Shown: positions 10,588-30,371 of the stretch, piece by piece
Layout: each line of letters starts with the position of its first letter
Position numbering within the stretch: position 1 is the stretch's first letter
Source: an uncultured bacterium
GTDB taxonomy: Bacteria; Bacillota_I; Bacilli_A; RFN20; CAG-826
Direction: 5' to 3'
Assembly: GCA_949293255.1 (NCBI GenBank)
Contig: CASFCL010000003.1
Span: 1 to 64,000 of the forward strand
DNA length: 64,000 nucleotides
Position numbers and translations under genes: made by a program
Notes under the pieces: generated by a model
What the model was told of the DNA's origin: nothing
The model's input: only the letters and a program-made list of their open reading frames with translations
Databases searched by the model: none

Positions 10588-12204
10588 ATGTTAATTGAAT
10601 TAGTTAGAAAGGAAATTATCGAAAGTAAAGACGATAAGCCTTCAAGAAAGGTTAATCTTTTAAGATGGGCTATTAAATTACTTGTTATAGCAGCTTTTAT
10701 TGCTATAGAAGTTTTTGTCTACATTTCTTTAGATAATCAACTTATAGCTAATGCTTCAATTTCTTCTTCATTTGATTTTTTAATTACAATTTTATTTATA
10801 ACCCTGTTAATCTCAATTATTTATACAACTTTAAAAGCTAGAACTGTTTTATTTTCTAAAAATGATTATAGTGTTATAACTCCTCTTCCAGTCACTAGTG
10901 GAGAGATTGTATTTTCTAAAGTTAGCTATTTATATTTAAAACAAACTTTAATTAATATTTGTATATCTTCTCCAATTTTAATTACCTATTTTGTTTTAAG
11001 AGGATTTATGCCTCCATTTTATGTATTTGGTCTAGTTTATGGAGCACTTATTTCATTTTTTGGAGTTGGTATTAGTTTAATTTTTTCAATCGTAGTTGAA
11101 TTTATATATAGATTATTAAAGTTAAGTGATATTGTTCAATTTGTTTGTGCTTCAGCTATTGTTATTTTACTATGCTATGCTTATCAATTTGTTTTAAATG
11201 CTTATTTAAGTGCCTTATCAACTAATGAAGGAACTGGAATGATTTCATCTTCTTTAATTGAGATGATGAGAGGACTTGCTTCTTATTTATATCCTATTTA
11301 TCCTTTAATTTATCCTCTTTGTGCAGCGTTTAATAATTTTGTTCCAGGAATCTTAATTTTTGCTTCATTATCATTTATTAGTGTACTAGTTGGATGTTTT
11401 GTTGCATCTATTTCTTATAAATTTATTCATTTAAGAAGCAAGGAAATTCAACTTAAAAAGAAAGGTAATAGACATGTTAAAGTGTTAGATCCTTTTAAAG
11501 CCTTACTTTATAAAGAGTTTGTCCTGTTATTTAAAGATAGTAGTTATACTTTCTCATATACTGCTTTACTTATCATGGCTCCATTTTTAAGTTTTGTCGT
11601 TATATCATCTTTAAATGTAATTATTTATAACAATTTAAAAATGTTTGCAGTGTATTTCCCAGAACTTACAAATGGAATAAATATTTTACTTATTTTACTT
11701 TTTGTTGGAGTTATTAATTCTAGTGCAAGTATGTCAATATCTAGAGAAGGAAGAAGTGTACAAATCGTAAAATATTTACCTCTTAATCCTTTAAAACAAG
11801 TTGTTGCTAAAATTATTACTCCAATAGTCTTATCTTCTTTATCTTTAATTATTTCTTTAAGTGTTTTAATTTCGACTGGAAATATCGATTACAAGGTATT
11901 TTTAGTTACTTTAGTGATTGGAGTTATTTTAATTATTGCTACATCATATTATGGATTATATTTTGATATGCATGATAAGTCTCCAAATACTAAAAAGTTA
12001 GGATATTTAACTAATGTTATTTCAATTGGATTACCTTTATTTATTTTAATTATTCATTTTGTTTTAGCATTATCTATTCCTAACTTAGCTTGGTTAATGT
12101 ATATATTAGAAATTATAGTTAGTGGATGTATACTTATTCCTATCTTTATAAAACCTAAAGATAGATGGATAAAAGTATTTAGAAGAATGGAGGTTAATGG
12201 TTAA
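10588..12204 (+). CDS. ABC-2 type transporter permease
   Basis: This 538-residue protein has about a dozen hydrophobic segments spread over its whole length. A soluble N-terminal stretch contains ARTVLFSKNDYSVITPLPV, the 'lP(V/I)' region seen before the permease core of many ABC-2 exporters of this size. A second copy of the pattern (SREGRSVQIVKYLPL, about residue 390) suggests an internally duplicated permease. An A-rich leader precedes the ATG without a clear Shine-Dalgarno sequence. Its stop codon overlaps the start of the next gene (TAATG at 12202-12206), so translation of the two is probably coupled. It should form the membrane channel for the ATPase encoded upstream. Confidence 0.82.
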   Translation: MLIELVRKEIIESKDDKPSRKVNLLRWAIKLLVIAAFIAIEVFVYISLDNQLIANASISSSFDFLITILFITLLISIIYTTLKARTVLFSKNDYSVITPLPVTSGEIVFSKVSYLYLKQTLINICISSPILITYFVLRGFMPPFYVFGLVYGALISFFGVGISLIFSIVVEFIYRLLKLSDIVQFVCASAIVILLCYAYQFVLNAYLSALSTNEGTGMISSSLIEMMRGLASYLYPIYPLIYPLCAAFNNFVPGILIFASLSFISVLVGCFVASISYKFIHLRSKEIQLKKKGNRHVKVLDPFKALLYKEFVLLFKDSSYTFSYTALLIMAPFLSFVVISSLNVIIYNNLKMFAVYFPELTNGINILLILLFVGVINSSASMSISREGRSVQIVKYLPLNPLKQVVAKIITPIVLSSLSLIISLSVLISTGNIDYKVFLVTLVIGVILIIATSYYGLYFDMHDKSPNTKKLGYLTNVISIGLPLFILIIHFVLALSIPNLAWLMYILEIIVSGCILIPIFIKPKDRWIKVFRRMEVNG

Positions 12205-14720
12205 TGAAAAAGAATAAAACTTTAGTAATCTTATTATTAATTCCGTTTGTTATTGGTTTATTAACATTTGTTAGTGTTGTCGCTTTAACAAATAATTTTG
12301 CTTCATATATTGAATATATCATCTTTAATTATCAAGAAAATGAAGGCTTTAGAACTAATAATGAATATCTTTTAGAAGCTGAAGGTCATCAAGCAAGAGA
12401 AGATTTAGAACTTGCTCCAGGAAATAATCTTGTTTGGGAGATTGTAAGCTATGGAGAAAATAGTGAAGGATGTGCCGTAATTGAAGAAAAAGAAGAAGGT
12501 GAATTTTATTTAGTTACCAGCGATAAAGAAGGTGACTGTTTAGTTAGATGTAGAACAGAAAATAAACAAGTTAAAAGAGATTTTAGAGCTCATATTTATG
12601 ATAACGCTTTAATTTTAATTAATCCTGTTGCTATAAGTAGTGGCTCGCAAATTGATGAAACTAGATATTATGGAGAATATGATGTTGATAGTAATAACAC
12701 CTGTTCAAAAACTCCTGCCGAGGTAGCTTTAAATGTTAGTGTATTTGGAGAAGGAGAAGGTGGAGAGATTAGAGTAGGAAGTAACACTACAAGCAATGTT
12801 TCATTTAATTCATCAAGTAGTGTAATGACTTTTAATGGTTCAGGAAATGCAACTTTAGAGCTAGAAACTTACGTTAATTCTGTTAATATTTCAGCAACCT
12901 ATTCATTTAATATCGTCTCGCAAGGTTATAACGTTTACGATTATTTAGATTTACTTGCTTGTACAAATAGATCATCAAGTGGAGAGATTGTTTGTTTACA
13001 AACAAACCTTCAATCACTTGCAAATACTTATAGGGTAAATAGAGATGAGCAAGGAAAAGATACATATATTGAAGAACATATTAATAACAACACTAAATTA
13101 TTTGGCATTTTTGATTTTGCTTCTCAATCATACGATTTTAGCGATTTAATTTATTATCAAGATCCAAAATTAGAAACTAAATTTATCGATCAATTCTTAG
13201 CTAGTGATAAAGTTGTTGCTGGATTTAATTATTCAACTCAAATGAAAGTAGGAATTAGAGCTCAAAAAGATATTTATGGAAATGGATTTACCATTAATAT
13301 GAATGATCTAGCTTATCCAAATCATGGTTATATTGATGCAACAACTGGAAAAATGACTCCAGATAGAACTTTAGATTATTTCTTTGGACCATTAACATTT
13401 GTTTCAATTGGTGATATTGAAACAATGTCAGTTATTAGAGCATATTTATGTGATAATGTTGGATTACTTTTAGATGGTGATAATATCATTTTAAATGATA
13501 TAAAGGTAAGAAACGCAAATAACGTTGATAATATGTATAATCTTACCTTTACAGGAACAGTCGTAGAAGTTCAAGGAGATAATGTTACAGTTAAAAATTC
13601 AATTATTGAAAATGGTAGAACATGTTTAAGAGCATTTAGTACTGATAACTTATTAATTGATAATTGTTTACTTCAAAATGCTGCTGAATTTATCGTAAAG
13701 TTAGGTTCTAATCGAGTAAATTCAACAAATCATAATAAAGAAGTTACTGTTAGATATGGTTCAAATACCATCACAACTGATTTTGAAGATTTCTATAATT
13801 TAAGTGAAGATAGTACCAAAGTTAATGCTGATAATGTTTTAACTGATTTATTCTGGGGAGCTCAAAATGGAGGCAACACTTATACTTCAACAGAAGTAAT
13901 TAATGCCTTAAATGATATTCAAGAAGGATTAGATAATTATGATGGTATTATAAACTCTGATGGTAGTGTCAATTATGATGCTCATATCACAATAAATGAT
14001 TCATTATTTTATAATAGTGGAATTTATTCAATTGCTTTAGAATCAGCATTTAATGGAGCTTATTTATATAATGGAATGCCAGGGTTAGTATCAATGCTAG
14101 CTGAAATATTTGGAATTTTACCAAATGATGTTGGAGGAACATCTTTCCCAGTAGAGCTTAAAATTACAGGAGATACAAGATTCTATGATTATCAAAATAT
14201 TGATTCTTTAGATATTACCGCTTTAATTGAAGAAAATTTCTCAACCTTTATTGGTCAAGTTGGAGGTGGTAGTAGCGGTGGTAGCTTAGATGATATTTTA
14301 GGAGATTTTTCAGGTATTAATATTGATTCTTTTTTCCCACTAAAAGCGATTATTAAAGATTACGCTATTCAAAATGGCCTGGCTTATAGAGTAAGTGAAG
14401 AAGATGGAACGACTTCATATTATGTTAATAGACCAATTGCATGGTATGGAGGAGGCTATAATGCCAGCACAGTCCATTTTGAAACTACAAATGATTATTC
14501 TTATTCTGATGAAGTAATTGCTGATTTAACTAATGATATTATTAATGGAATTCATGTTCCAGCAACTGGTGAATTACTTTCATATTCAACACTTGCTAAA
14601 TGTGTCATTATGGCAATTGGTACTCATCCATTTAAGTTTATTATGAATGGTAGATTAAGTGGAAGTGGTGAGCCAGAATATTTTAATGAGGTTCCAAATA
14701 TTAGTTATTTAACTAATTAA
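12204..14720 (+). CDS. Large surface protein with beta-helix region and N-terminal anchor
   Basis: This 838-residue protein has one hydrophobic segment at residues 7-29, which would serve as a signal or signal anchor. Residues 60-240 look like Ig-like (Big) domains, with alternating strands rich in Ser, Asn and Gly. Around 410-500 come repeated short strands such as NVTVKNSIIENG and NLLIDNCLLQNA, the pattern of right-handed parallel beta-helices of the pectate-lyase type. A Gly/Ser linker (GGGSSGGS, about 690) precedes the C-terminal part. It lacks the SipW-type Trp motif. Start overlap (TAATG) couples it to the permease gene. A structural or adhesive role at the cell surface is inferred; no catalytic motif is visible. 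Confidence 0.7.
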   Translation: MKKNKTLVILLLIPFVIGLLTFVSVVALTNNFASYIEYIIFNYQENEGFRTNNEYLLEAEGHQAREDLELAPGNNLVWEIVSYGENSEGCAVIEEKEEGEFYLVTSDKEGDCLVRCRTENKQVKRDFRAHIYDNALILINPVAISSGSQIDETRYYGEYDVDSNNTCSKTPAEVALNVSVFGEGEGGEIRVGSNTTSNVSFNSSSSVMTFNGSGNATLELETYVNSVNISATYSFNIVSQGYNVYDYLDLLACTNRSSSGEIVCLQTNLQSLANTYRVNRDEQGKDTYIEEHINNNTKLFGIFDFASQSYDFSDLIYYQDPKLETKFIDQFLASDKVVAGFNYSTQMKVGIRAQKDIYGNGFTINMNDLAYPNHGYIDATTGKMTPDRTLDYFFGPLTFVSIGDIETMSVIRAYLCDNVGLLLDGDNIILNDIKVRNANNVDNMYNLTFTGTVVEVQGDNVTVKNSIIENGRTCLRAFSTDNLLIDNCLLQNAAEFIVKLGSNRVNSTNHNKEVTVRYGSNTITTDFEDFYNLSEDSTKVNADNVLTDLFWGAQNGGNTYTSTEVINALNDIQEGLDNYDGIINSDGSVNYDAHITINDSLFYNSGIYSIALESAFNGAYLYNGMPGLVSMLAEIFGILPNDVGGTSFPVELKITGDTRFYDYQNIDSLDITALIEENFSTFIGQVGGGSSGGSLDDILGDFSGINIDSFFPLKAIIKDYAIQNGLAYRVSEEDGTTSYYVNRPIAWYGGGYNASTVHFETTNDYSYSDEVIADLTNDIINGIHVPATGELLSYSTLAKCVIMAIGTHPFKFIMNGRLSGSGEPEYFNEVPNISYLTN

Positions 14721-14740
14721 ATATATAGGAGATATAGGTT

Positions 14741-15901
14741 ATGAAAAAAGGTATGTTTAAAAGATTAGGTAAATGTTTATTATTAAGTAGTGCTTTAGTT
14801 TTTGGAAGCGTGTCACTAGCATCTTGTGATATGTTTTTTGGAAGCGATGGGACTGCAGTTTTAAATTATGAAGTAACTGTTGATGAAACAACTGGAGATA
14901 CAACAGTTGTTGTTAGTTTTGTTGATGATTCAATGGAAGATCTTACTTTTACAATCCCTGCTGATGCTTTAGATGGAGTTGGAATTGAAAGTATTATTCC
15001 TACATATAACGCCGAGGATTCTTCAATAATCTTAACAATTACCTATACCGATTCTTCCTATCAAGATACCGTCATTACCGTTCCTGTTTTAAAAGGTGAA
15101 GATGGAGAAAATGGCGTTAGTGTCACTGGAGTAGAAGTTGGAAGTGATGAAAATGGAAATACCACAATTCAATTTACATATAGTGATGAAACAACAAGTG
15201 AATTAATTACCATTCCTAAAGGTATCGATGGAGTTGATGGAGTTGGAATTGCTGATATTGATGCTTTTACTTATCCAGAAGGAATGACTGAAGTTACAAT
15301 TACTTATACCAATGAAGAAACAGAAACATTTTTCCTTCCAGGAGTAACTTCAATTGCTGATATTAGTTATGATCAAAGTTCATCAACTGAAACTGAATAT
15401 GGATTAATTATTAATTTTACAGATGGAACAAGTACGTCAATTACTCTTCCTAGACCTCAAGCAACTGAGTGGTTTTATGGAGCTCTTCCACCCTCAGATA
15501 CTTTAGGAAGTGATGGAGATTTCTATTTAAATATTTCTAATGGTGAAGTTTATACAAAAGCAAATGGAGTATGGGCAGCTATATTTTCTATTCAAGGTAG
15601 TGGAAGTAGTGCAAGCGTAAATAGATATTATGTTTCATTTGTTTTAAATGATGGTAGTGAAAGCTTTGTTGATCCAAATCCAGATGATAATATTACTTTT
15701 AGTGGAACTTCAATCTCTCAAAGAGTTGATGAAGGATATGTATTTACTTTAGATGAAATACCTTTAGTAAGTAAAGAAGGATATACATTTGAAGGATGGT
15801 ATACCACAGCTGATAATAATCCTAACGCTGGAAAATTAAGCGATATTACCCCTGTATTTTCAAATCTTACTTTATATCCTCGTTGGAGCCAAAACGCATA
15901 A
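14741..15901 (+). CDS. Surface lipoprotein with collagen-like segments and an InlB-type repeat
   Basis: This 386-residue lipoprotein has a basic N-terminus, a hydrophobic stretch and the lipobox SLASC, so it is lipidated at Cys29. Two short collagen-like pieces (KGEDGENG, about 121; KGIDGVDGVG, about 163) alternate with beta-rich segments that resemble each other (a VTITYTNEET / ILTITYTDSS pattern). The C-terminal 70 residues match the Listeria-Bacteroides (InlB B) repeat, ending in GYTFEGWYTT and LYPRWS. Such repeats occur in Gram-positive surface adhesins. AGGAGA and TAGG lie before the ATG. This is the last gene of the operon; a strong terminator follows. Confidence 0.82.
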   Translation: MKKGMFKRLGKCLLLSSALVFGSVSLASCDMFFGSDGTAVLNYEVTVDETTGDTTVVVSFVDDSMEDLTFTIPADALDGVGIESIIPTYNAEDSSIILTITYTDSSYQDTVITVPVLKGEDGENGVSVTGVEVGSDENGNTTIQFTYSDETTSELITIPKGIDGVDGVGIADIDAFTYPEGMTEVTITYTNEETETFFLPGVTSIADISYDQSSSTETEYGLIINFTDGTSTSITLPRPQATEWFYGALPPSDTLGSDGDFYLNISNGEVYTKANGVWAAIFSIQGSGSSASVNRYYVSFVLNDGSESFVDPNPDDNITFSGTSISQRVDEGYVFTLDEIPLVSKEGYTFEGWYTTADNNPNAGKLSDITPVFSNLTLYPRWSQNA

Positions 15902-15950: not shown

Positions 15951-16074
15951 GTTTTAAATTTAAATTTTATTCTACATTTATTTCACACTTTTACGAATTC
16001 ATTTTTTTCTTGTTACTCATTACTTATTAAATTTAAGAAACTTAAAAATTAAAAATTTAAACTTTTTAAAGTAT

Positions 16075-17288: not shown

Positions 17289-17631
17289 ATTATTAAAATT
17301 GAGAAAGAGAAATTGGAGATTTAGAAGTGTTAGATTGTGGATTTATTGGATTAATAAAACCATTTTGAATATATGTATTTACACAAAGTACAAATTGAAT
17401 CTAAATAATTGACAACATTAAATTTAAAAGGCTTGATTGTACTCTAATTTAATAATCTTAAAACCTAATAGATTAGATGAAGTTATAAATGATAACAATG
17501 AAGTCTAAAAAGATATTCTAACGACCATTGATGACTATAATAGAAATTGCAAAACAAATATATTTAATTCTATATCGGCAAAAAAAATATTAACATTATT
17601 TATTTTTGCCGATAAATGATAATATATTTAT
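17289..17631. other. Intergenic region upstream of the Fic gene
   Basis: No gene is visible. The only distinct structure is the perfect inverted repeat at 17573-17614, close to the Fic reading frame. Confidence 0.5.
17573..17614. promoter_or_regulatory. Perfect 12-base inverted repeat upstream of the Fic gene
   Basis: TATCGGCAAAAA (17573-17584) pairs with TTTTTGCCGATA (17603-17614) across an 18-base loop. It lies 17 bases before the Fic frame. It could be an operator for the helix-turn-helix domain of the Fic protein or a terminator-like attenuator. Confidence 0.6.
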
Positions 17632-18525: not shown

Positions 18526-18666
18526 AATCTTTGTTTGTTAGGTAAAACTTGTTTTATTGATTTAGGAATAATGTGAAATTATATTGAAAATGATTAATTA
18601 ATAAATAAGTCAATTTATTATTAAATATATAGATAAAAATATATAACGATAGTGGTGGTTTTTTAA

Positions 18667-18682
18667 GTATACATTTATGTAC
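18667..18682 (+). other. Candidate recombination site, left (L)
   Basis: GTATACATTTATGTAC stands here on the plus strand, 35 bases before the cassette 1 small gene. The identical 16 bases occur on the minus strand at 24320-24305, next to the serine recombinase, and a variant occurs at 25413-25428. The central TA with flanking half-sites fits a serine recombinase site, but crossover has not been shown. Confidence 0.5.
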
Positions 18683-18716
18683 AAATCTTGATTTTAAAAG
18701 GATATCCACTGCAAAA

Positions 18717-19463
18717 ATGTATCAAAAAATAAAAATTCAAAATATTGTTATTCTTGAAAATTTAGATGTATTTTTAGATTCTAATATTTGTTTTGAATGT
18801 TTAAATAATGTACTTCCATTGCTTCTTTCTTTAATATCTATTTTTTGTGTTGGATATGCTGGATGGACATTATCAGGAACAGGAGTTTCTACTAGTGTTA
18901 ATGCAAGTGTTGGGGATGTAATTGACACATCAAATTATATATATTTTGATTCTACATACGGAAGCAATAACTCAGGTATTGATCCATTTTCATACGTTCA
19001 AGATAGTGCTGTAAATGGCTTTGTAGATGAAAACGGAATGGTCAATTCTAGTGCTGTGTTAAAATTTTATTTAATATTTGATTTTGGTAACTATTATTTT
19101 TATGATACATCTTTTAAAGACAATGGAGCTTTTAATTTTTATTTATCATTGAGCTCAAATTCGTATTTGTCCTCAACATACTTAGATTCAGCCATTTTAA
19201 ACTTAAATAATTCACAATATGCTAGTGGAAATTATGTAGGTTCTGCTCCTAGATTCAGTTTTAACGGCATAACAAATACAACTAATTTCTCTATTTTTAA
19301 TTGCAATTTACAAGTAAGCAATATTCCTTCAAATTTTTCACAATCTTATACCTTACGTTATAGATTAACATTTTCTCTTGTTTTTAATTTTAAATCTTCT
19401 ATGGTTGAAGAAGTAATTTCAAATATTTCTAATTTTTCTCTTGCTTTGGGGGTTTATTTCTAA
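18717..19463 (+). CDS. Cassette 1 small SipW-type surface protein, start region altered
   Basis: The frame encodes 248 residues. From residue 33 on, it matches the cassette 2 small protein: LPLLLSLISIFCVGYAGWTLSG, then a nearly identical VNASVGDVIDTSNYI stretch, then divergence. Compared with the cassette 2 gene it lacks about 43 bases that hold the Shine-Dalgarno sequence, the ATG and the basic first residues. A 16-base insertion just upstream supplies a new ATG at 18717. The product would carry a 32-residue leader translated from what is untranslated DNA in cassette 2, with acidic residues before the hydrophobic core. No usable Shine-Dalgarno sequence precedes 18717. It is therefore either silent or poorly secreted in this form. 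Its stop overlaps the next start (TAATG at 19461-19465). Confidence 0.62.
   Translation: MYQKIKIQNIVILENLDVFLDSNICFECLNNVLPLLLSLISIFCVGYAGWTLSGTGVSTSVNASVGDVIDTSNYIYFDSTYGSNNSGIDPFSYVQDSAVNGFVDENGMVNSSAVLKFYLIFDFGNYYFYDTSFKDNGAFNFYLSLSSNSYLSSTYLDSAILNLNNSQYASGNYVGSAPRFSFNGITNTTNFSIFNCNLQVSNIPSNFSQSYTLRYRLTFSLVFNFKSSMVEEVISNISNFSLALGVYF
18721..18811 (+). repeat. Inverted repeat arm, left (partner 24191-24281)
   Basis: These 91 bases are identical to the reverse complement of 24191-24281. Weaker similarity extends outward to the L/M sites and inward through the signal-peptide region to about 18942 (partner about 24020). The repeat bounds a segment of about 5.6 kb carrying two convergent gene pairs. 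Confidence 0.85.
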
Positions 19464-21625
19464 TGAGAGTTAAAAAATACCGTTTAAGGAAATTGCTAGC
19501 TGTTGAATTATTTGCTTTTTCCTGCTCGCTTGCTTATAGCGATTGGAGGATTCCTTCTAATAATTCTCAAATGCCTACACCATTAAAGCAAGATTCAGTT
19601 TGCTATGTTAAACGAAATGGTTCTATACTTGGTTATTTTGTATCTCTTTCGGGAGCAATGAAATATTGCTATCAAAATAATGAGAATGATTCGATATATG
19701 TTATTCCGGGAGGAACAAATGCTTGTAATACAATTACGATAGAAAACGAAACTTTAAATATAGAAGCTGGAGACTCTTTAATTTTACCTCACACAGGTGA
19801 ATATTGGGGAGATACTCAAAGCTCAAATGATCAAAATAATTCAAACGCATCAGTTTCTTTTGGAAATTCTACTTATAAGAAAATACAACTTAATTTAGTA
19901 AATACAACTATTAACGTTAACGGATTATTAGGTGTCGGTGGATTATGGGGAGGACTAAGCTCAAAAAAACATGGTTTTACTGGCGGAAATTATTCTGAAA
20001 TTATAATGGATAGCTCATCAAAATTAAATATATATGGAAACATGAGGGTTTATGGTTATATTGGAAAAAGTACAAATTTTACTTCTACAATCTCGATAAA
20101 TGTTTATTCAGGCGGAAGTGTGTCAGAACCTCTAGTTGTTTATGACTTTGAAGGTGGAACTAATACAGTAACAGGTTTAATGGGAAAAGCATTCTTTTTT
20201 AATTGCTATGACATGCCATCAATTGAAGTTCCGATGTTATTAAATTATGGATCAACTTTAGTTGGAAAAGCAGCAATATACATGAGTGATGCTCATAGGT
20301 ATACTGATGGTACAATCTTTTCAACATCAAGCGCAGCTTTTTTAACCGCTAACTCTTCTGATGCGTCACTTTTATGGGACTATAATAGAAACTCAACTTC
20401 ATATGCTCATACAAATTACTTAAATCATAAAACAACATTAACAACATACGGAAATATTACATTTAATAAATTGGTGGTAAGTATCTTTTTCCTTATTAAC
20501 TATACCGTGGATTCATCTGACTATTTTTTACCGGTGAGTTCAATGTACTCTTTTATAGTAAATGGAACTTTAAATATTAATAATAAAATACAATTTTTAC
20601 CAGGAGCTTCTGTCAAGATTAATGAAACAGGTTTTGTATATATAAACGCAAATGTGGTTGCTCATGAAAACAACAATTTAACAATTGCAGAGCACAATGT
20701 TTCCTCTACTAGAGCAGAAATCATTAATAATGGAACGATTGTACTAAATTCTGGCTTTCAAGGATATATACAACCTGAAAACAGCGATTATACCTCTATG
20801 GTAGTAACTGGAGGAAATTATTCTTCAAGTGTTTCTACATGTAATGTTAAAACTGGGGGAAAGGAATATGAAGCGGTATCATTTTCTTCAATAATTAAAG
20901 AAGAAACATCAGACACTAACTTACAAACCAATTCTTATTATACTTCCAATGCTTCTTTAACAAATTCATTTTATCGTCTTTATGGAGGTCAAACAGCTTC
21001 TATAACATTCAATACTATTGAAGAAACAGGAGATTTTTATTATTCTCCAGTATTTTATGTTGATGTGTCTTTTTCTTCATCTGAACTTACTTTTTCGTAT
21101 GTAGTTACTTCTCCTACAACATTATACTTACCTATAGGTTCATCTTATAGCATTTATAAAGATGATGATGATATCACTGTGAATAGAATTATTTTAGGCT
21201 CAACCCAACTCGACCTCCTTAATCCTACATCTCAAACTCTTTCAAATACAATAACAGCTGATGTATATCCAACATTTGAAAGAGAATCAACACCTATTAA
21301 AAGCATTACTTTGTATTCAAATGACGTACCATCTGGAAATTTAAGTTCTGATGGAGGCCAACTATTTTCAATTTTTATAACTACAGATCCTTCCGATTTA
21401 AGTAATTCAAAATATAATAATTTTAGTTGGACTGTATCAAATGCTACAACTCCCGCAGTCGCAGATTTTACTAGCGAAGCAATACCTATTGTTGTTGAAA
21501 AGAATTCGACGCCGTTCATCAGCACCTCCAGGAATGTTAAAATCAAATTATCTGTTTTCGACTTTAAGAGCGGAAACATCATTTCTTCCAATGAGTTTAG
21601 CAAACGTCAAGATGGGTGGCGGTAG
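19463..21625 (+). CDS. Cassette 1 large beta-solenoid surface protein
   Basis: This 720-residue protein has a basic start, a short hydrophobic stretch and SLAYSDWRI, a SipW-like Trp motif at about residue 28. It shares blocks with the other two large cassette proteins: an opening CYV...G...YFVSLSGAM...YVIPGG segment, then VVYDFEGGTNTVTG, a 'mlLNYGSTL' block and a 'FLPGASVKINETG' block. Together these suggest a parallel beta-solenoid stalk. An Ig-like domain is likely near 600-700. The last residues (FSKRQDGWR) look unlike a natural end, and the +1 frame stays open for eight more codons, so the C-terminus may be shortened. GGGGGT serves as its ribosome binding site. A surface adhesin or fibre role is inferred. 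Confidence 0.7.
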   Translation: MRVKKYRLRKLLAVELFAFSCSLAYSDWRIPSNNSQMPTPLKQDSVCYVKRNGSILGYFVSLSGAMKYCYQNNENDSIYVIPGGTNACNTITIENETLNIEAGDSLILPHTGEYWGDTQSSNDQNNSNASVSFGNSTYKKIQLNLVNTTINVNGLLGVGGLWGGLSSKKHGFTGGNYSEIIMDSSSKLNIYGNMRVYGYIGKSTNFTSTISINVYSGGSVSEPLVVYDFEGGTNTVTGLMGKAFFFNCYDMPSIEVPMLLNYGSTLVGKAAIYMSDAHRYTDGTIFSTSSAAFLTANSSDASLLWDYNRNSTSYAHTNYLNHKTTLTTYGNITFNKLVVSIFFLINYTVDSSDYFLPVSSMYSFIVNGTLNINNKIQFLPGASVKINETGFVYINANVVAHENNNLTIAEHNVSSTRAEIINNGTIVLNSGFQGYIQPENSDYTSMVVTGGNYSSSVSTCNVKTGGKEYEAVSFSSIIKEETSDTNLQTNSYYTSNASLTNSFYRLYGGQTASITFNTIEETGDFYYSPVFYVDVSFSSSELTFSYVVTSPTTLYLPIGSSYSIYKDDDDITVNRIILGSTQLDLLNPTSQTLSNTITADVYPTFERESTPIKSITLYSNDVPSGNLSSDGGQLFSIFITTDPSDLSNSKYNNFSWTVSNATTPAVADFTSEAIPIVVEKNSTPFISTSRNVKIKLSVFDFKSGNIISSNEFSKRQDGWR

Positions 21626-21680
21626 TTTTACACTTGTGACAGGTTTTTAGATATAAATTTGAACATAATTTCAGCTTTAT

Positions 21681-21718
21681 AAATGCGATATTCATCGGAA
21701 AAATCGCATTTTTTCATT
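21681..21718 (+). terminator. Terminator after cassette 1
   Basis: Arms AAATGCGAT (21681-21689) and ATCGCATTT (21703-21711) are followed by a T-rich tail. It closes cassette 1, which converges with cassette 2 across about 240 bases of spacer. Confidence 0.85.
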
Positions 21719-21862
21719 TTTGCAAATTTGGTCTCACATCATTTGTTATTAAACAGATTGATTATCTTTGTATTGATGATAAAAGCTATATAAAAAGTGA
21801 ATAAAAAGTATAAGTTTAATTATTACTATTAAATTAGTAAATGTAATATTTTAAAAGAGTAA

Positions 21863-23554
21863 TTAATTTGTCCAATAGGCATTAGAATCAGCGTCTAGTA
21901 CACTTGTATATGTAGAACTCCCATTAAAGTTAGTTAGATTTGTTGCACTGGAAATATAACCCTGGGCATTGTATGTGACATTATTAGGAGTAACATCTGG
22001 CAACGTTCCAAGAAAACCGGTCTTTAATTTAGATAATATAGGCATAGAAACGCTAGCTTTTGTAATAAAATTTATTATAGAATTTGCTTTCTCTGTTTTA
22101 ATAAAACCACCTAAACCATGACTAGAATTATTTGATGAATATATGATTCCATTATTTATTAAAACTCCATCTGACATATCTGAAGGATAATATGTATAGT
22201 TTGACCACGAATCAAAAATAGTTTCTCTTTGCTGAAAATAAGAAGGAAAATCACTGCTCTTAATTATACCAGTGTTCCAGTTAAAGTATACCTGTGCACC
22301 TTCATCAATATTAATTGAACTCCCAGGCATAATTTTCAGTTGGACATGAAAGTTATATGTTCCTTCGAATAGATTTAGTCTTAATCTATGAGATAGCGGA
22401 AACATTTTTCCACTGGTTGTTATATCATATGCTGCAACTGTTAATGAAATATCGTTAACAGTCACTCCCCCATAACAATTAACATTTGTATAAGAATTTA
22501 TATAATGTTCAGCTGAGTAATTATTACTATGCACTGTATGTGCAAAATAAGAAGAATTAAATTTATAATCTATATAGCCTCCATCAAGAATTTTAATAAT
22601 TCCAGCCGAAGCTGTTTTTGTTCCATCATTAGAAGCCTCATAACCAATTAGGGTAACTTCAGTATTATACATTAAATCCCCGGTTGTAACATATACGCTG
22701 GAATAGGCATTTAATAAGGAGCCATAATTTAATATTACATTTGTATGAGAATTAGGAAAATCAAATAGGTTAATCGGGAAGAAAGTTGAATCTTTTAAAG
22801 CATTAGTGATTGTTCCACCGGCGTAATCATAAAAAACTATAGGTTGATATAGAATACAATTATCGTTAACAATTAGTTTAGAATTATTATTATCTGAAAC
22901 TGGTTTAATATAACCCCTTAGATCCAAAGTAGGTGTACCTGTAACATTTCTTTCCAGTACTATAGAAGCTGATGTACCTAATTGGACTTCAGCATATGAT
23001 GATGTAGTAGCACCAGCTAATCTACCCCCTCTATGGCCTATAATCCCTCCGATATTCATTCTTCCATTAATTGTTAGCTTTTGGCCACTTTCAATTCTTA
23101 AAATTATTTTTCTATTTGTTGCAATTAAAGCATCAGTTTGGTCAGCAAAATTATAATTGGAAGGATACCCGGATGATGTATCTAAGGTTTGAGCATAAGT
23201 CTCTCCTTCATAAGGTAAAGTCAAAATGTCTGTACTTTCAAGTGTGTGTGACTCTTTCATAGTAACGAGAGTGTGAGTGTTACTAGAAGAGTCGTCATTA
23301 TTAAGACTTGGGATTACATACAAAGTATCGTCAATTCCATTTCCGTAAATATTTTTTAAAGCAGAATCAATATTCGTATAATATGTCGTGCCTTTAGAAT
23401 TTGTTGAATAACAAACAGCTATTCCAGAATCTGCAGTTGTCGTCTTAGTAGTAGATGAGAGAACCCAATCAGATACTCCAACAACACATAATAAAATTGG
23501 AATAATTAAAAGGAGGAATCTAAACGTTTTGGACGATACTAATTTATTGAACAT
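21863..23554 (-). CDS. Cassette 2 large beta-solenoid surface protein
   Basis: This 563-residue protein has a SipW-type signal: hydrophobic core FLLLIIPILLCVVG followed by VSDWVL, with Trp near residue 30. It shares with the cassette 1 and 3 proteins the block 'IVFYDYAGGTITNAL', then 'FDFPNSHTNVILNYGSLL', and 'LKIMPGSSINIDEGAQVYF'. The order and spacing of these blocks match, so the three are paralogues. It is shorter than both and ends soon after the last block without an Ig-like tail. AGGAG stands nine bases before the ATG. The gene overlaps the end of the small-protein gene by 11 bases, so the pair is translated together. It points toward cassette 1. Confidence 0.72.
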   Translation of the reverse strand: MFNKLVSSKTFRFLLLIIPILLCVVGVSDWVLSSTTKTTTADSGIAVCYSTNSKGTTYYTNIDSALKNIYGNGIDDTLYVIPSLNNDDSSSNTHTLVTMKESHTLESTDILTLPYEGETYAQTLDTSSGYPSNYNFADQTDALIATNRKIILRIESGQKLTINGRMNIGGIIGHRGGRLAGATTSSYAEVQLGTSASIVLERNVTGTPTLDLRGYIKPVSDNNNSKLIVNDNCILYQPIVFYDYAGGTITNALKDSTFFPINLFDFPNSHTNVILNYGSLLNAYSSVYVTTGDLMYNTEVTLIGYEASNDGTKTASAGIIKILDGGYIDYKFNSSYFAHTVHSNNYSAEHYINSYTNVNCYGGVTVNDISLTVAAYDITTSGKMFPLSHRLRLNLFEGTYNFHVQLKIMPGSSINIDEGAQVYFNWNTGIIKSSDFPSYFQQRETIFDSWSNYTYYPSDMSDGVLINNGIIYSSNNSSHGLGGFIKTEKANSIINFITKASVSMPILSKLKTGFLGTLPDVTPNNVTYNAQGYISSATNLTNFNGSSTYTSVLDADSNAYWTN

Positions 23555-24170
23555 TTATGTATGCTCCTATATTCAATGATATTCCATTTGTTACATTAAT
23601 TGATGAATAAATAGATGTATAATCACTAACTTCAAATGTAACTAAAATTCCAAAATAGATGGTTTCTATCGATCCGTTTGTATTTAAAATTGAGGCGATA
23701 TTTAATGTACTGTTTGAAACTGATGGAGTTAAAAATAAGCTTGTATTACTAGCTCCAAGAATTCCATAGGAAGCTTGAGTTGCAGCAATTTTTGAATTTG
23801 TTATTAAATCATAAGACCCTGAATTTTTAATTTCTACTTTAAAAACAAGTTGATTATTTGTTATAAGTTTAGCGTTATTACATGTATTAAGATTGATTTG
23901 ATAATGAATTGTTAAAGAAGCCGTATTACCAATTATTCCTTCGTTAGCAAAACCCTTATCTGTATATACAATATTTGAAATGCCTGAATTGTTGTCCCCT
24001 CTAACTGAATTATAAGAAATATAATTCGAAGTATCGATTACATCTCCAACACTCGCATTAACACTAGTAGAAACTCTTGTTCCAGAAAGTGTCCATCCAG
24101 CATATCCAACACAAAAAATAGATGTTAAAGAAAGAAACAATGGAAGTAGTAATTTAGCTTTCTTAACCAT
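23544..24170 (-). CDS. Cassette 2 small SipW-type surface protein
   Basis: This is the best preserved small protein of the two facing cassettes, with 208 residues. The start at 24170 is chosen because GGAGAA lies at a proper distance; the resulting MVKKAKLLLPLFLSLTSIFCVGYAGW is a textbook SipW-type signal with basic start, hydrophobic core and G-Y-x-G-W. The following VNASVGDVIDTSNYI is shared with cassette 1, then the sequences part company. The mature protein is Ser/Asn/Ile-rich and probably all beta. It is likely a fibre or anchor subunit that works with the large protein encoded downstream and overlapping it. Confidence 0.75.
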   Translation of the reverse strand: MVKKAKLLLPLFLSLTSIFCVGYAGWTLSGTRVSTSVNASVGDVIDTSNYISYNSVRGDNNSGISNIVYTDKGFANEGIIGNTASLTIHYQINLNTCNNAKLITNNQLVFKVEIKNSGSYDLITNSKIAATQASYGILGASNTSLFLTPSVSNSTLNIASILNTNGSIETIYFGILVTFEVSDYTSIYSSINVTNGISLNIGAYINVQ

Positions 24171-24190
24171 TGTTTTCTCCCGATAAATTG

Positions 24191-24281
24191 ACATTATTTA
24201 AACATTCAAAACAAATATTAGAATCTAAAAATACATCTAAATTTTCAAGAATAACAATATTTTGAATTTTTATTTTTTGAT
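24191..24281 (-). repeat. Inverted repeat arm, right (partner 18721-18811)
   Basis: This arm is identical over 91 bases to 18721-18811 on the opposite strand. Here it lies entirely in the untranslated leader of the cassette 2 small gene. Full identity in a non-coding leader, next to coding sequence that has drifted, suggests recent exchange or selection on the DNA itself. Confidence 0.85.
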
Positions 24282-24304
24282 TATCCTTTTTAAAATCAAG
24301 ATTA

Positions 24305-24328
24305 GTACATAAATGTATACATTTATGT
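24305..24328. other. Candidate recombination site, middle (M), perfect palindrome
   Basis: Bases 24307-24328 form a perfect 22-base palindrome (half ACATAAATGTA). The minus-strand reading of 24320-24305 equals site L exactly. The site lies 72 bases from the recombinase stop codon, between the recombinase gene and cassette 2. Confidence 0.55.
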
Positions 24329-24400
24329 CGTATTAATAATACCACCATTAATATTTTTTGTAAATACCAAATAAAATAGTCAATTTATTCAAGAAAACAA

Positions 24401-25000
24401 TTATTTTTTTGTTTCAATTGATCTTAAAAAATTATAGAAAGCAGTTCTTGATATACCTAGTCTAGTAGTAGCTTCTTTAACAGTAATTTCTTTATTTTTA
24501 TATAGCGATGCAACTTCATAATATTCATCAGTAATCACTAAAGATGGTCTACCAAATTTAACACCTTTTTCTTTAGCGATCTTAATTCCTTCAGCTTGTC
24601 TTTGTCTAATGGTATCTCTTTCATTTTCAGCAATAAAAGATAGAAGTTGGAGAACAAGATCTGAGACAAATCTTCCCCATAAATTCGAAGGTTTATCTCT
24701 TGTATCTAGTATTGGCATATCTATTACAAATATATCAGCTTTGATATCTTGAGTGATTACTTTCCGTTGTTCTCCAATTTCTCTATAGTTTCTTCCTAAC
24801 CTATCAATTGATTTGATAACTAGAAGATCTTTTTCTTTTAATTTTCTTATTAATCTACGATACGATTTTCTATTAAAATCTTTCCCTGATTGTTTATCGA
24901 TAAATATGTTTTTATCTTCAATTCCAAGTTTATACATTTCTTCAACTTGTCTGTCGGTTTTTTGAGTAACTGACGATACTCTTACATATCCATAATTCAT
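24401..25000 (-). CDS. Serine recombinase (resolvase/invertase family)
   Basis: The start at 25000 gives a 199-residue protein beginning MNYGYVRVSS, as in Hin/Pin/TnpR-type enzymes. AAGGAG stands ten bases upstream. The catalytic Ser is Ser9 of RVSS. Further signatures are KSIDRLGRNYREI (residues about 64-76), the long E-helix region (LLSFIAENERDTIRQRQAEGI) and KGVKFGRPS, then a C-terminal helix-turn-helix (ITVKEATTRLGISRTAFYNFL). The length is that of small invertases and resolvases, not of large integrases. Its position between inverted and direct copies of the same 16-base site makes DNA inversion of the surface cassettes the natural reading. No resolvase-type transposon genes are nearby. 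Confidence 0.92.
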   Translation of the reverse strand: MNYGYVRVSSVTQKTDRQVEEMYKLGIEDKNIFIDKQSGKDFNRKSYRRLIRKLKEKDLLVIKSIDRLGRNYREIGEQRKVITQDIKADIFVIDMPILDTRDKPSNLWGRFVSDLVLQLLSFIAENERDTIRQRQAEGIKIAKEKGVKFGRPSLVITDEYYEVASLYKNKEITVKEATTRLGISRTAFYNFLRSIETKK

Positions 25001-25400
25001 ATAAAACATTCTCCTTATGAATATATTTTAAAGTAGCAGTTATTTATCGTGATTTTATTAGGATGGTTGCGTTTAAAGTAATAAATTTAAATAACTTAAA
25101 AGCTTATTTATAAAAAACATATGTTTTCCTACATATTTTAATGTTACGCTAAACTTTTGTGTGACAATTGCTATTAATTCTTAGTTTTTACAATGAATTT
25201 TAACCATGCATATTTGTGATAAGAATAGTTATGATTTTAGGCCTCTAGGTCCTGACTTCATAATGACTGTCAGTAGGGAAATCGCCGATTTAATAAATCG
25301 TTTTTTATATCAAAAATTTTAAAAGTTAATTAGATATAAAATGTTAATATTTAAGTCAATTTATTATTTTTAAATTGAATTAAATCTATAGTATTTTACC
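25001..25400. other. Intergenic region between recombinase and cassette 3
   Basis: No gene is visible in these 400 bases. The stretch contains the recombinase ribosome binding site (about 25011-25016), a small palindrome CGATTTAATAAATCG followed by six T (about 25287-25307) that could be a weak terminator, and a sequence AGTCAATTTATTATT near 25354. That last sequence also occurs about 60 bases before site L (18608). A -10-like TATAGT lies at 25387-25392. Confidence 0.5.
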
Positions 25401-25412
25401 ATGTTTATTTTT

Positions 25413-25428
25413 GTATACATTTATATAC
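25413..25428 (+). other. Candidate recombination site, right (R)
   Basis: GTATACATTTATATAC differs from sites L and M by one base and is in the same orientation as L. It lies at the head of cassette 3. Confidence 0.45.
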
Positions 25429-25451
25429 GAAAGTTAATTATTTTCTTACAT

Positions 25452-26102
25452 ATGAATCTAAAACCCATTAAAAATTCACTAAAAATAGTAAATAAAAAAA
25501 GCAGCGGAATCTTACTTTTGCTCTCAATTTTTAGCCTTTTTAGTGTAGGATTTTCATCATGGATTTTAGTCAACGAAAATGAAAATTCAATGTCAGTTAA
25601 TGTTGATGGAACAGTAGGTGATGTTATTGATCTTACAGGATTAGTAACATTAGATACTTCTAATGTAACAATCACTGATTATGGTTATTCAGGGTTTATA
25701 AAAAATGGAATATATTCAACATTAGGATATGTTGCTTTACCAGTTACTATTAATCCAAAAGAAGGTGAAAATTATACACTTTATCCTTCTTTATCTTATA
25801 CTTGGGATGAAATAACGGAATCAACAGCAGTTGCTTTTAGGGAGAATTTTTACAGATGTTCATTTGATACAACTTTAGATTATGGAACATCAGTTTTATA
25901 TGGTACTTTTTCATCAAGTTTAAGTACAAAATATTCTGCAGCATATTCTTTTGATTATTCATCTAATAGTTCATCATTAGGAACAAATTTTTATATTATT
26001 TTTGAACTTGGTCCATTTAGTGAGTCTTTATATGAAAGATTATCAGATTCTTCTTTAAGGTTTTCTTTTTCGTTAAATATAGGAGTTGATACAAATGCTT
26101 AG
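25452..26102 (+). CDS. Cassette 3 small SipW-type surface protein
   Basis: The ATG at 25452 gives 216 residues beginning MNLKPIKNSLKIVNKK, then a hydrophobic core and FSVGFSSWIL: a SipW-type signal with Trp at about residue 37. VDGTVGDVIDLTG follows, the family signature shared with cassettes 1 and 2 and with the operon protein at 4057. The rest has diverged. No Shine-Dalgarno sequence precedes this ATG. An in-frame ATG at 25401 would add 17 residues, and a -10-like TATAGT ends nine bases before it, so a leaderless transcript is possible. The stop overlaps the start of the large-protein gene. Confidence 0.68.
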   Translation: MNLKPIKNSLKIVNKKSSGILLLLSIFSLFSVGFSSWILVNENENSMSVNVDGTVGDVIDLTGLVTLDTSNVTITDYGYSGFIKNGIYSTLGYVALPVTINPKEGENYTLYPSLSYTWDEITESTAVAFRENFYRCSFDTTLDYGTSVLYGTFSSSLSTKYSAAYSFDYSSNSSSLGTNFYIIFELGPFSESLYERLSDSSLRFSFSLNIGVDTNA

Positions 26103-29100
26103 TATGAAAAATAAAAAGAGAGTTTATAGAAGATCGATATTTTATTATCTATTTTTCTTTATGCTCTTTTTTGTTACACCTATTGCAATATGTTCATGGA
26201 TATTATCTGATGTAGTTATTTATGAAAATATTAAGGCTGATTTTAAACCTAGTGGTTTAACTGATTATATTAATGGTCTTAGTAGTGGAACAAGTAATTA
26301 CATTTACGATAATAGTGTGAATTATAATGATGATAATTATCGAAATGAAAATGCTTCATATTTAGCAACGGCTCAGAGTGCATCTGATACATACGTTTCG
26401 AATTATGTTTTAGCTGCTGAAGATGAATCGTCCTATAGAGGCTACGATATAGATAGCGACTTTACATATATTGGTGGTAAAACAAAAACGATTGAATTAG
26501 GAAATCCATTTTCTACAACAACAATTAATAAAAATGTTCATTTTACTCATACAAATAGTGAAATTAATTATTCATGGAGCAGTATAAGTTCTTTTTCTGT
26601 AAACGATAACGCAGAAGATGAAGCTGGAACATCTAGTAATTTAAGTTCTAATAGTTTTTTCCAATATAGAGTCTACAATAGTTCTCAATCACGTATGGAG
26701 TATCGATACTCTAATAGATTTAATAAAAACGTAAATTTTTATTGGGGAATTAATGCAAATTATGATGGAACATCCCATACAAAGCACGGTACAGTAACTG
26801 CTATCCATTACTATGGCGACCAAGGTGCCTCTAGGATTACTGTAACTTCCGCTGTACCTTATGGAAGACTTTATACAGTTAAACTTGTCGGAGATTTACT
26901 AATTACTGATAATTCAACCTTATCAATTGGTGCATTAATTGGAGCAATTTCAACTACATTTTCAGGTGGCGTCATTAATGGGGATTTTGTGTGTTTAGAT
27001 TTGAATGGCCATACAATTACTATTGACAGTGGTTCAACTTTAAATGCTTGGGGATATGTAATTGATTCTTCATTAGATGAAAATGGTAATCATTTAGGGC
27101 AAATTGTTAATAATGGAACAATTTATACAAGTTTTGTTGTTGAAGATTATGGTGGAGGTGGTAATACTGTTGGTAGAGGATTCACTAATACAATGCCTTT
27201 TTCACTATATTCCTTACCTTATTTAGCTTGCAAAGTAAAGACGAATTATGGTGGTAGCATTATTTGTGGAACAATGCTTTATGCTAGTGATACACAAAAT
27301 AGAACCTTATTAAATTGGATAGGGAATACAAGTAGTTATTTTATTCAAATGACTACATCTGGAGATTACATTACTATTGATACATATAATAATTGTTCAT
27401 CGAACATGAACACACATGTTAAAGGATCATCAACACTGCAACCATTCCATTCTAATTATTATCTAAACGGTACAATCAATATTAATAGTTTAACGCTTAA
27501 TTTAAGTGTTTCTGTTATTAGTGCTACTATCAATATGTCTCAATATCCATTTCAAATTCCTCCATATGCTCGAATTACAATTTCTTCATCTAGCACTATA
27601 ACTTTACCTATTCATCTAGAGTTGAATCCTGGTTCAACTCTAGTAGCTTATGAAGGAAGCAAGATAAACTTTACTTCTGTTACTTATCAGACTTCCGCAA
27701 CTGCCCTGGGAAGTACTAAAGTAATTGCTAGTGGGACATCTTATGGTGGAATAAGTGTGCCAACTCAGATGCCACCTACTGGGAATACTTCTTTTGCAAT
27801 TACTGGTGCATCAGGTCAAAGTAACGGCTTATATGGATATACATCATCCTATTATACAGATTATGAATCAGCTGAAAAAAATTTGATATTACAAAATAAT
27901 CCAAGAGTTAAAATTAATAGCACTTTAAACTTTAGCGGTAACGGTCATATATTAAGTGGATTAATGTCTTTAGGTGCAGAAACTCTAAATTCAATTACGA
28001 ATGCAGTAAATCAAGGAAAATTAACTACTTTTTATAGAAATGCACAAACATTCGAGAATTTTGGAACAAATACTAGCGATGCTATTTCTTTTGTTAACAC
28101 AGGTGCTAATCCCGGAAATATTTCTTATGGAGGTTATACTATTCAGCCTCTTGCAACTTCAAGCAGTCAAGTTTCTATTAATTATACTGACGCTACAATT
28201 GATGATAGCGGAAATAGCGATAGTGAAGCTTTAGTTTTATATAAAGTTGTTTCTCCAAGTTCATTTAATGCTAACTTTGATGCTAATACTTATTATGATT
28301 TTAGAAATGGTTTTTATTATAATTCAAAAACAAGTAAATATTATATTTATAAATTAGTTAGCGGAAGCGGAACGCCTGTAACATCAATAGGAAGGATTCA
28401 AACACTTGGTAATTTTGTTGAAGTAGAATCAATAAATAAAGACCATAGTGTAACATATAATAGTGCCAAATATTTGTTTTTCGAGGATACTTTTGTTTCC
28501 ACAAATATATCAAGTCCTTCTACTTCTGGTAATGGTTTATATCTTTATGATAATTCAACAAAAGCTTATAATTTGATTAGTAACTTATCAGCAAATTACA
28601 CATTTGAGGCTAGTGTTCGTAGAAGAAGATATAGAGGTGCAACTTCTGTTACAAGTAGTTCAGCTAATACTACTTATGCTGCAAGTGGAACTGCCAGTAA
28701 ATCCTATATTGCTTGGATTCCAGGAAGTATTACTTATCCTACTTCATGGACGAATTTACCTAATTTTGAAGAAGATGCTTATGATGATGTTAGATATACA
28801 GGAGAACAAGTTGATCAGGGCACTGTGCCAACAAAAGGTATAGTTTATGTTTCTAATGTATCACTTAATTCTTTTACTGTTTCAAATGTAAATACTTCTA
28901 GTCAAAGAGTAGATTTAACAGTTATTTCTCAAAGTGCGACATATAGTTCTACCTATAATTTAATAGGTACATGCGATATCAGTTATAGCAATGAATCCGG
29001 ATATACATATTCATATTCCGATCCTTGGCAGACTGATAGCGCTTCAAGTGGTTTTCCTGATAGTAGTTGGAAAGCTCCAACAATTGGTACAGGAACAGTT

Positions 29101-29256
29101 AGTAGAACTCGGTATTTAGATCACTATTATTTTTATAGATATTCATATTTTGTTTCAGGCAATTATAACGAGACTGGTGCTAATTTGTATACAAATGTAT
29201 TAAGTTCTGGGAGCAATATTAAATACACCTCTTCAACAGGCTTATGGACAAAATAA
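26095..29256 (+). CDS. Cassette 3 large beta-solenoid surface protein
   Basis: With 1053 residues this is the largest protein of the family. The start at 26095 is preferred because AGGAG lies nine bases upstream. The N-terminus is basic, then hydrophobic, ending in PIAICSWIL, again a SipW-like Trp motif. About residues 340-540 contain the blocks shared with cassettes 1 and 2 ('FVVEDYGGGGNTVG', 'FSLYSLPYLACKVKTNYGGS', 'LELNPGSTLVAYEGSKINF'). The C-terminal 400 residues are unique: Tyr-, Ser- and Thr-rich with aromatic patches, ending in repeated strand-like segments. It overlaps the small-protein gene. It is probably a surface fibre or adhesin whose tip differs between cassettes (inference). 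Confidence 0.72.
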   Translation: MLSMKNKKRVYRRSIFYYLFFFMLFFVTPIAICSWILSDVVIYENIKADFKPSGLTDYINGLSSGTSNYIYDNSVNYNDDNYRNENASYLATAQSASDTYVSNYVLAAEDESSYRGYDIDSDFTYIGGKTKTIELGNPFSTTTINKNVHFTHTNSEINYSWSSISSFSVNDNAEDEAGTSSNLSSNSFFQYRVYNSSQSRMEYRYSNRFNKNVNFYWGINANYDGTSHTKHGTVTAIHYYGDQGASRITVTSAVPYGRLYTVKLVGDLLITDNSTLSIGALIGAISTTFSGGVINGDFVCLDLNGHTITIDSGSTLNAWGYVIDSSLDENGNHLGQIVNNGTIYTSFVVEDYGGGGNTVGRGFTNTMPFSLYSLPYLACKVKTNYGGSIICGTMLYASDTQNRTLLNWIGNTSSYFIQMTTSGDYITIDTYNNCSSNMNTHVKGSSTLQPFHSNYYLNGTININSLTLNLSVSVISATINMSQYPFQIPPYARITISSSSTITLPIHLELNPGSTLVAYEGSKINFTSVTYQTSATALGSTKVIASGTSYGGISVPTQMPPTGNTSFAITGASGQSNGLYGYTSSYYTDYESAEKNLILQNNPRVKINSTLNFSGNGHILSGLMSLGAETLNSITNAVNQGKLTTFYRNAQTFENFGTNTSDAISFVNTGANPGNISYGGYTIQPLATSSSQVSINYTDATIDDSGNSDSEALVLYKVVSPSSFNANFDANTYYDFRNGFYYNSKTSKYYIYKLVSGSGTPVTSIGRIQTLGNFVEVESINKDHSVTYNSAKYLFFEDTFVSTNISSPSTSGNGLYLYDNSTKAYNLISNLSANYTFEASVRRRRYRGATSVTSSSANTTYAASGTASKSYIAWIPGSITYPTSWTNLPNFEEDAYDDVRYTGEQVDQGTVPTKGIVYVSNVSLNSFTVSNVNTSSQRVDLTVISQSATYSSTYNLIGTCDISYSNESGYTYSYSDPWQTDSASSGFPDSSWKAPTIGTGTVSRTRYLDHYYFYRYSYFVSGNYNETGANLYTNVLSSGSNIKYTSSTGLWTK

Positions 29257-30330: not shown

Positions 30331-30371
30331 CAAAGAATTTATTTTATTATCAAAACATGAGGAGTATAAAG

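What the first reader, a model, noticed from the sequence alone, without database searches (positions are those of the whole stretch)
18660..25430. Candidate invertible surface-protein locus with its own serine recombinase
Two paralogous gene pairs (18717-21625 plus, 21863-24170 minus) face each other between inverted repeats: 91 identical bases (18721-18811 / 24191-24281) preceded by an identical 16-base site (18667-18682 / 24320-24305). A Hin/Pin-size serine recombinase gene (24401-25000) lies directly outside. A third, one-base-different copy of the site (25413-25428) heads a third cassette. Recombination L x M would swap which cassette lies behind each outside flank. M x R would flip the recombinase segment, and L x R would delete the lot. 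This would be a surface phase-variation switch acting on whole two-gene cassettes rather than on a promoter alone.
Basis: partly seen in the sequence, partly recalled or inferred. Interest (0 to 1): 0.88.

Follow-up and report, generated by a model that had tools for sequence, protein, structure and literature searches.

The report
Self-flipping promoter for alternative surface operons
A Bacilli bacterium carries a DNA-flipping enzyme beside a promoter inside a short invertible segment, which by all signs points that promoter at one or another of several alternative surface-protein operons; it is a known kind of switch in a new arrangement and lineage, supported by a relative in which the same promoter flank is joined to two different operons exactly at the predicted cut site.

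Summary
The interpretation needs re-centring. Four same-genus genomes carry this recombinase in the same chromosomal context; their recombinases form one clade (100/96). In the two where both sides are readable (G019, G025), inverted GTATAC-centred sites flank the recombinase gene itself, with divergent cassettes outside. So the recombinase is not outside the switch: the conserved invertible unit is the ~1.1-kb M-R segment (about 24318-25415), carrying the recombinase and, at its 3' end, the best outward promoter match. In 8 of 10 cassettes the start codon lies 4-33 nt from the crossover, leaving no room for a cassette promoter. In congener G001 an identical 127-nt recombinase-3' flank is joined to two different cassettes, diverging exactly at GTATA|; 127 nt is that assembly's graph overlap. 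The recombinase points opposite ways in different relatives. Several congeners without it have an ordinary co-directional cassette. Cassette L is an extra option seen only here; its first gene has lost its start region. No inversion was shown within this genome. New variant of a known kind.

The parts
24318..25415 (.). Proposed core invertible segment (site M centre to site R centre), carrying the recombinase and an outward promoter at its recombinase-3' end
   Evidence: Inverted GTATAC sites flank the recombinase here and in G019 and G025
24401..25009 (-). Serine recombinase, 202 aa, resolvase/invertase family, nearest solved relative Sin/Tn552
   Evidence: PF00239 E 2.7e-25; 2r0q E 1.1e-26; single copy
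24308..24327 (-). Site M: perfect palindrome CATAAAT-GTATAC-ATTTATG; GTATAC at 24315-24320
18667..18682 (+). Site L: GTATAC core 18667-18672 with cassette half-site ATTTATG
25413..25428 (+). Site R: GTATAC core 25413-25418 with cassette half-site ATTTATA
24336..24364 (-). Predicted promoter facing cassette M: TTTACA-17-TATTAT with extended -10 TGG, -10 ends 15 nt before GTATAC (same spacing in G019)
   Evidence: consensus match only
18600..18619 (+). Accessory-like dyad AATAAAT-AAGTCA-ATTTATT, centre 60 bp outside core L
   Evidence: chance estimate
24370..24389 (+). Accessory-like dyad AATAAAA-TAGTCA-ATTTATT, centre 62 bp outside core M
25346..25365 (+). Accessory-like dyad AATATTT-AAGTCA-ATTTATT, centre 60 bp outside core R
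23544..24170 (-). Cassette M gene 1 (208 aa, N-terminal hydrophobic export signal)
   Evidence: no Pfam or NCBIfam match
21863..23554 (-). Cassette M gene 2 (563 aa, beta-helix-like model, pTM 0.65)
18717..19463 (+). Cassette L gene 1 ORF, start region deleted relative to M, probably defective
19463..21625 (+). Cassette L gene 2 (720 aa), closest to G001 cassette A gene 2 (28%)
25452..26102 (+). Cassette R gene 1 (216 aa from the ATG 33 nt after the core)
26086..29256 (+). Cassette R gene 2 (1056 aa)
18721..18811 (+). 91-nt repeat arm, L leader
24191..24281 (-). 91-nt repeat arm, M leader
10588..15901 (+). Conserved anchor genes: membrane protein, 838-aa protein, lipoprotein; precede the cassette locus in relatives

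Best explanation
A self-contained promoter-inversion switch. The serine recombinase (24401-25009) recognises GTATAC-centred dyads and inverts the ~1.1-kb segment between sites M and R that contains its own gene. A promoter at the recombinase-3' end of the segment points outwards, so in one orientation it drives cassette M (the state assembled here) and in the other cassette R. Each cassette is a two-gene operon for exported, probably surface, proteins. Cassette L carries the same site inverted relative to M and could in principle be exchanged with M by L x M inversion, but its first gene looks broken now. Shown: anatomy, conserved site/recombinase/cassette arrangement, one recombinase clade, opposite recombinase orientations in relatives, and one flank joined to two cassettes exactly at the core in G001. 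Inferred: promoter identity and activity, ON/OFF assignment, surface location, ongoing inversion in this organism.
For: Syntenic loci in G019, G025 and G001: anchor, convergent cassette, recombinase, and in G019 and G025 a second cassette beyond it. GTATAC sites flank the recombinase in inverted orientation in G019 (21-nt perfect repeat) and G025. In G019 the cassette halves of both sites are identical over about 18 nt while the flank halves differ. The recombinase points towards the anchor in the window and G019, away from it in G025 and in the G001 recombinase contig. G001 contigs C28, C10 and C61 share exactly 127 nt (recombinase 3' end plus flank); C28 ends there and the other two diverge at GTATA|C vs GTATA|G into cassettes X and Y; other contig pairs of that assembly also share exactly 127 nt, so it is the graph overlap. 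Gene 2 of Y is 45% identical to that of G025's anchor-proximal cassette, which lies on the recombinase-5' side in G025 but the homologue on the recombinase-3' side in G001. Start codons lie 4-33 nt from the core in 8 of 10 cassettes. Best promoter score is higher on the recombinase-3' than the -5' flank in 4 of 4 genomes. GTATAC is the most enriched palindromic hexamer within 300 bp of 79 family members (32 vs 9.3 expected, p 5e-9). Recombinase clade 100/96.
Against: Only one arrangement is assembled in the window's genome. G001 is a 2.0-Mb, 80%-complete MAG with two lipoprotein alleles, implying at least two strains, so its branch may reflect differences between strains rather than switching within a clone; its recombinase contig has an in-frame TGA. 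Promoter scores are individually not significant. One cassette family (G019_A, G025_B, G001_X) stays on the recombinase-3' side while changing side relative to the anchor, so part of the orientation difference is older rearrangement or cassette replacement. Cassettes are mostly 20-45% identical, not allelic copies.
Confidence: 0.75

Rival explanations
1. One reading: the main reaction is L x M inversion, swapping whole two-gene cassettes between the two outside flanks, with the recombinase outside.
For: L and M share the longest inverted repeat (91 nt perfect plus 142 nt at 89%) and sites in inverted orientation 5.6 kb apart; the M flank carries a promoter match and the L flank none.
Against: L is absent at this position from G019, G025 and G001, where the recombinase-flanking sites persist. 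L gene 1 lacks its start region. The long L/M identity lies inside the cassettes, not at the crossover, and fits gene conversion or duplication better than site-specific inversion.
Confidence: 0.12
2. A relic: the recombinase is a resolvase-type enzyme left by a mobile element, and shared sequences reflect past duplication and rearrangement, with no current switching.
For: Closest solved relative is Sin, a resolvase; many family members lie in unrelated contexts; G001's recombinase has an in-frame stop; pseudogenes lie beside L.
Against: Recombinase open and conserved at this locus in the window, G019 and G025 with flanking dyads; exact joining of one flank to two cassettes at the core in G001.
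Confidence: 0.1
3. The sites and dyads are mainly operators through which the recombinase or another protein represses the cassettes, and recombination is incidental.
For: Dyads overlap the expected transcription start; accessory-like dyads lie about 60 bp outside each core.
Against: An operator does not explain divergence of the G001 contigs exactly at the dyad centre, nor flank/cassette half-site exchange.
Confidence: 0.03

Closest known systems
Salmonella Hin / fljBA invertible H segment (own knowledge)
   Same: Serine recombinase gene inside the invertible segment together with an outward promoter; controls a surface protein
   Different: Here the promoter would alternate between two divergent operons instead of plain ON/OFF; the core centre TA is palindromic; the recombinase is nearer Sin than the invertases of known structure; no enhancer was tested
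Campylobacter fetus sap and Lactobacillus acidophilus slpA/slpB S-layer gene inversions (own knowledge; slpB called silent in PMC6015585)
   Same: One promoter region serves alternative surface-protein genes in opposite orientation that share 5' sequence
   Different: Here the recombinase is encoded inside the flipping segment and the cassettes are two-gene operons sharing little beyond the site
Bacteroides Mpi-controlled promoters and gut invertons (PMC11892184, PMC8748976)
   Same: Promoter inversion between short inverted repeats near surface genes
   Different: Mpi model matched far below its cut-off (50 vs 272 bits); one dedicated locus; PMC11892184 reports a median of 0 invertons per genome in Bacillus-like Firmicutes
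Sin/Tn552 resolvase and resH (PMC2428073, PMC2764113)
   Same: Closest solved relative; a second element about 60 bp from each crossover recalls a site I / site II layout
   Different: Sin sites act in direct repeat and site II is head-to-tail; here M and R are inverted and the accessory-like elements are inverted dyads

Membership tests
Small serine recombinase (resolvase/invertase) family | Resolvase catalytic domain with C-terminal HTH, about 180-210 aa | tested here: met
   PF00239 89.6 bits (cut-off 23.3); HTH_7 20.1 bits, just under its 23.8 cut-off; RVSS and SIDRLGRNY aligned with Sin
Invertible-promoter switch (inverton) | Promoter flanked by inverted recombination sites | tested here: inconclusive
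   Sites M and R inverted around 24318-25415; the promoter is only a consensus match
Invertible-promoter switch (inverton) | Both orientations observed | tested here: inconclusive
   Opposite orientations among relatives and one flank joined to two cassettes in a mixed-strain MAG; only one in the window's genome
Hin/Gin/Pin-type DNA invertase | Asymmetric central dinucleotide giving sites a direction | tested here: not met
   Core GTATAC has a palindromic central TA at every site of the window, G019 and G025; that TA is the cut position is inferred
Hin/Gin/Pin-type DNA invertase | Fis-bound recombinational enhancer | not testable with these tools
   No enhancer consensus for this clade
Mpi family | NCBIfam NF009949 score at cut-off | tested here: not met
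   50.2 bits against 272
Sin/resH resolution system | Crossover sites in direct repeat with head-to-tail site II | tested here: not met
   M and R are inverted; accessory-like elements are inverted dyads

The most novel reading that the evidence does not exclude
A one-of-three selector: a single recombinase-linked promoter is routed to cassette L, M or R by two overlapping inversions at GTATAC dyads with palindromic cores, helped by accessory dyads about 60 bp outside each core, and over evolution the same sites let the locus take up and exchange two-gene surface cassettes.
Probability: 0.3. Interest if true: 0.7.

Novelty: new variant of a known kind. Interest (0 to 1): 0.56.

Why it matters
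It would be a dedicated antigenic or surface switch in an uncultured Bacilli genus, a group in which few invertons are reported (median 0 per genome in Bacillus-like Firmicutes, PMC11892184). It gives a compact, testable design: recombinase, promoter and two sites in 1.1 kb. It also links a large family of Bacillota serine recombinases to GTATAC-centred sites, which gives a handle for finding more such switches. The contrast between congeners with one fixed, co-directional cassette and those with a recombinase and divergent cassettes shows how a fixed surface operon may become a switch.

Tried and rejected
Recombinase homologues across the order (25 genomes): all outside the four-genome clade sit in other contexts, so they inform site preference at most, not this switch. 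Viral contigs: no relative above about 60% identity, none close enough to help. Fourth site on contig C16: no cassette gene nearby, judged chance. Accessory dyads: not clearly found in G019, G025 or G001, so kept as a feature of the window only. Promoter scoring: the recombinase-3' flank wins in 4 of 4 genomes, but no single score is significant. Structure of gene 1: model useless (pLDDT 37). Gene 2: beta-helix-like, but best Foldseek match (antigen 43) only E 3.9e-3 with TM about 0.1, so no fold claim. A site-orientation rule (L x R deletes) was rejected as unsafe because of the palindromic centre.

Full report
Observation. Two gene pairs converge between 18717 and 24170; their upstream ends share a site (GTATACATTTATGTAC), a 33-nt 97% repeat around it, a 91-nt perfect repeat and 142 nt at 89%, all inverted. 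A 202-aa serine recombinase (PF00239) lies at 24401-25009 and a third site at 25413. The recombinase and these sites occur nowhere else in the 1.25-Mb genome in this form. The site is best read as a dyad centred on GTATAC; at M it is a 20-bp perfect palindrome.

Comparative anatomy. A search of 279 genomes of the order and 26 of the genus found the recombinase at this locus in four congeners. In all, the locus follows the same anchor genes (membrane protein, ~840-aa protein, ~370-aa lipoprotein). G019 (L001, recombinase 72% identical): anchor, cassette (-), recombinase (-), cassette (+). G025 (L101, 60%): anchor, cassette (-), recombinase (+), cassette (+). G001 (L102, 60%, one in-frame TGA): anchor, cassette (-), recombinase (+), contig end. 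The window: anchor, degenerate AlbA_2-like and Fic-like genes, cassette L (+), cassette M (-), recombinase (-), cassette R (+). The four recombinases form one clade (100/96). In six congeners without the recombinase the cassette family follows the anchor in the same direction, as an ordinary operon. The shared unit is therefore the recombinase flanked by inverted sites between divergent cassettes; L is an addition.

The site. In G019 both sites carry TAAAAGTTCATAAATGTATAC, and the cassette halves of the two sites are identical while flank halves differ; in G025 the core is AAAAGTATACTTTT. Across 79 other loci with recombinases of this family, GTATAC is the most enriched palindromic hexamer within 300 bp of the gene (32 seen, 9.3 expected, p 5e-9), often with extended dyads. 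This supports GTATAC as the recognition core of the family, with the usual cut at the central TA inferred from serine-recombinase chemistry. Because TA is palindromic, the core gives no direction; with an AT centre both resolution and inversion are possible for Sin (PMC2764113).

Evidence for exchange. In G001, contigs C10 and C61 begin with the same 127 nt, which are also the last 127 nt of the recombinase contig C28: the recombinase 3' end and its flank up to GTATA. They then diverge into two different two-gene cassettes, X (...GTATAC ATTTATG) and Y (...GTATAG ATTTACG). Two other pairs of contigs in that assembly also share exactly 127 nt, so this is the assembler's overlap at a graph branch. 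The branch lies at the predicted crossover. The caveat is that G001 mixes strains: C28 and C61 carry different alleles of the anchor lipoprotein. A further pointer: cassette Y is homologous (gene 2, 45%) to the anchor-proximal cassette of G025, yet it joins the recombinase-3' flank while in G025 it joins the recombinase-5' flank. Against over-reading, another family (G019_A, G025_B, G001_X) stays with the recombinase-3' flank but changes side relative to the anchor.

Mechanism. In 8 of 10 cassettes the start codon is 4-33 nt from the core, too close for a promoter on the cassette side. Transcription must then start on the flank side. In the window the recombinase-3' flank has TTTACA-17-TATTAT with an extended -10, ending 15 nt from GTATAC; G019 has TGC-TAAAAT at the same distance, G025 TGA-TAAAAT at 17 nt. 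G001 has TATAAT 6 nt before the core, though the scan's best-scoring match there lies elsewhere. The best score on the -3' flank beats the -5' flank in all four genomes, though none is significant alone; flank L scores lowest among the three window flanks. The likely state here is M on, R off, L off. Inversion of M-R would turn R on. L x M inversion would place L behind the promoter, but L gene 1 has lost its ribosome-binding site and start codon, so L is probably a silent or decaying cassette.

Accessory elements. In the window a second dyad of similar arms (AATAAAT-N6-ATTTATT) lies 60, 62 and 60 bp outside cores L, M and R. Background density is 0.25 per kb, so three such coincidences are unlikely, although L and R flanks may be related by descent (42 of 80 nt identical). 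They are not clearly present in the relatives. They may be accessory recombinase sites, regulator operators, or partly chance.

Cassette proteins. Gene 1 (about 210 aa) and gene 2 (560-1180 aa) have hydrophobic N-termini typical of exported proteins and no Pfam or NCBIfam match in the window. Gene 2 models as a beta-rich, helix-like repeat fold of moderate confidence (pTM 0.65) without a convincing structural match. Surface location is inferred.

Verdict. The locus is most likely a promoter-inversion switch with its recombinase inside the flipping segment. It resembles Hin in logic, S-layer promoter inversion in outcome, and Sin in enzyme relationship, but meets the full definition of none.

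Noticed in passing
L001:9355-12267, L101:6363-8780 and 10874-13810: Gene 2 of the relatives carries a C-terminal Hint-like region (weak Pfam Hint matches in two of three, shared sequence in all), absent from the window's cassettes; may be self-processing.
   Followed up: partly
window 16052-18525: Frame-broken AlbA_2-like gene and a Fic-like gene (HPFQDGNGR motif) with an in-frame stop, between the anchor and cassette L; an intact AlbA_2/HATPase_c_4 gene lies beyond cassette R at 30357-31619.
   Followed up: partly
window 16052-16122 and 30019-30089: 71-nt direct repeat (73%) upstream of both AlbA_2-like genes, ending in CATCTTGTTAGTAAGGAGGT.
   Followed up: no
L028, L036, L026, L053 downstream of the recombinase: Pairs of GTATAC-centred dyads about 120-175 bp apart just downstream of recombinase homologues in Lachnospiraceae and other Bacillota; possible small invertible promoters.
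   Followed up: partly
L103 and L104: A GTATAC dyad lies about 165 bp upstream of the recombinase, at the start of a divergent 490-aa gene; a large protein with a TIR-like N-terminus lies downstream.
   Followed up: no
L135 and L141: Recombinase homologues directly beside genes that look like type III restriction-modification subunits (judged by eye).
   Followed up: no
L142, L147, L149: Congeners carry further paralogous lipoprotein and exported-protein gene sets near the anchor operon, suggesting a large variable exported-protein repertoire.
   Followed up: no
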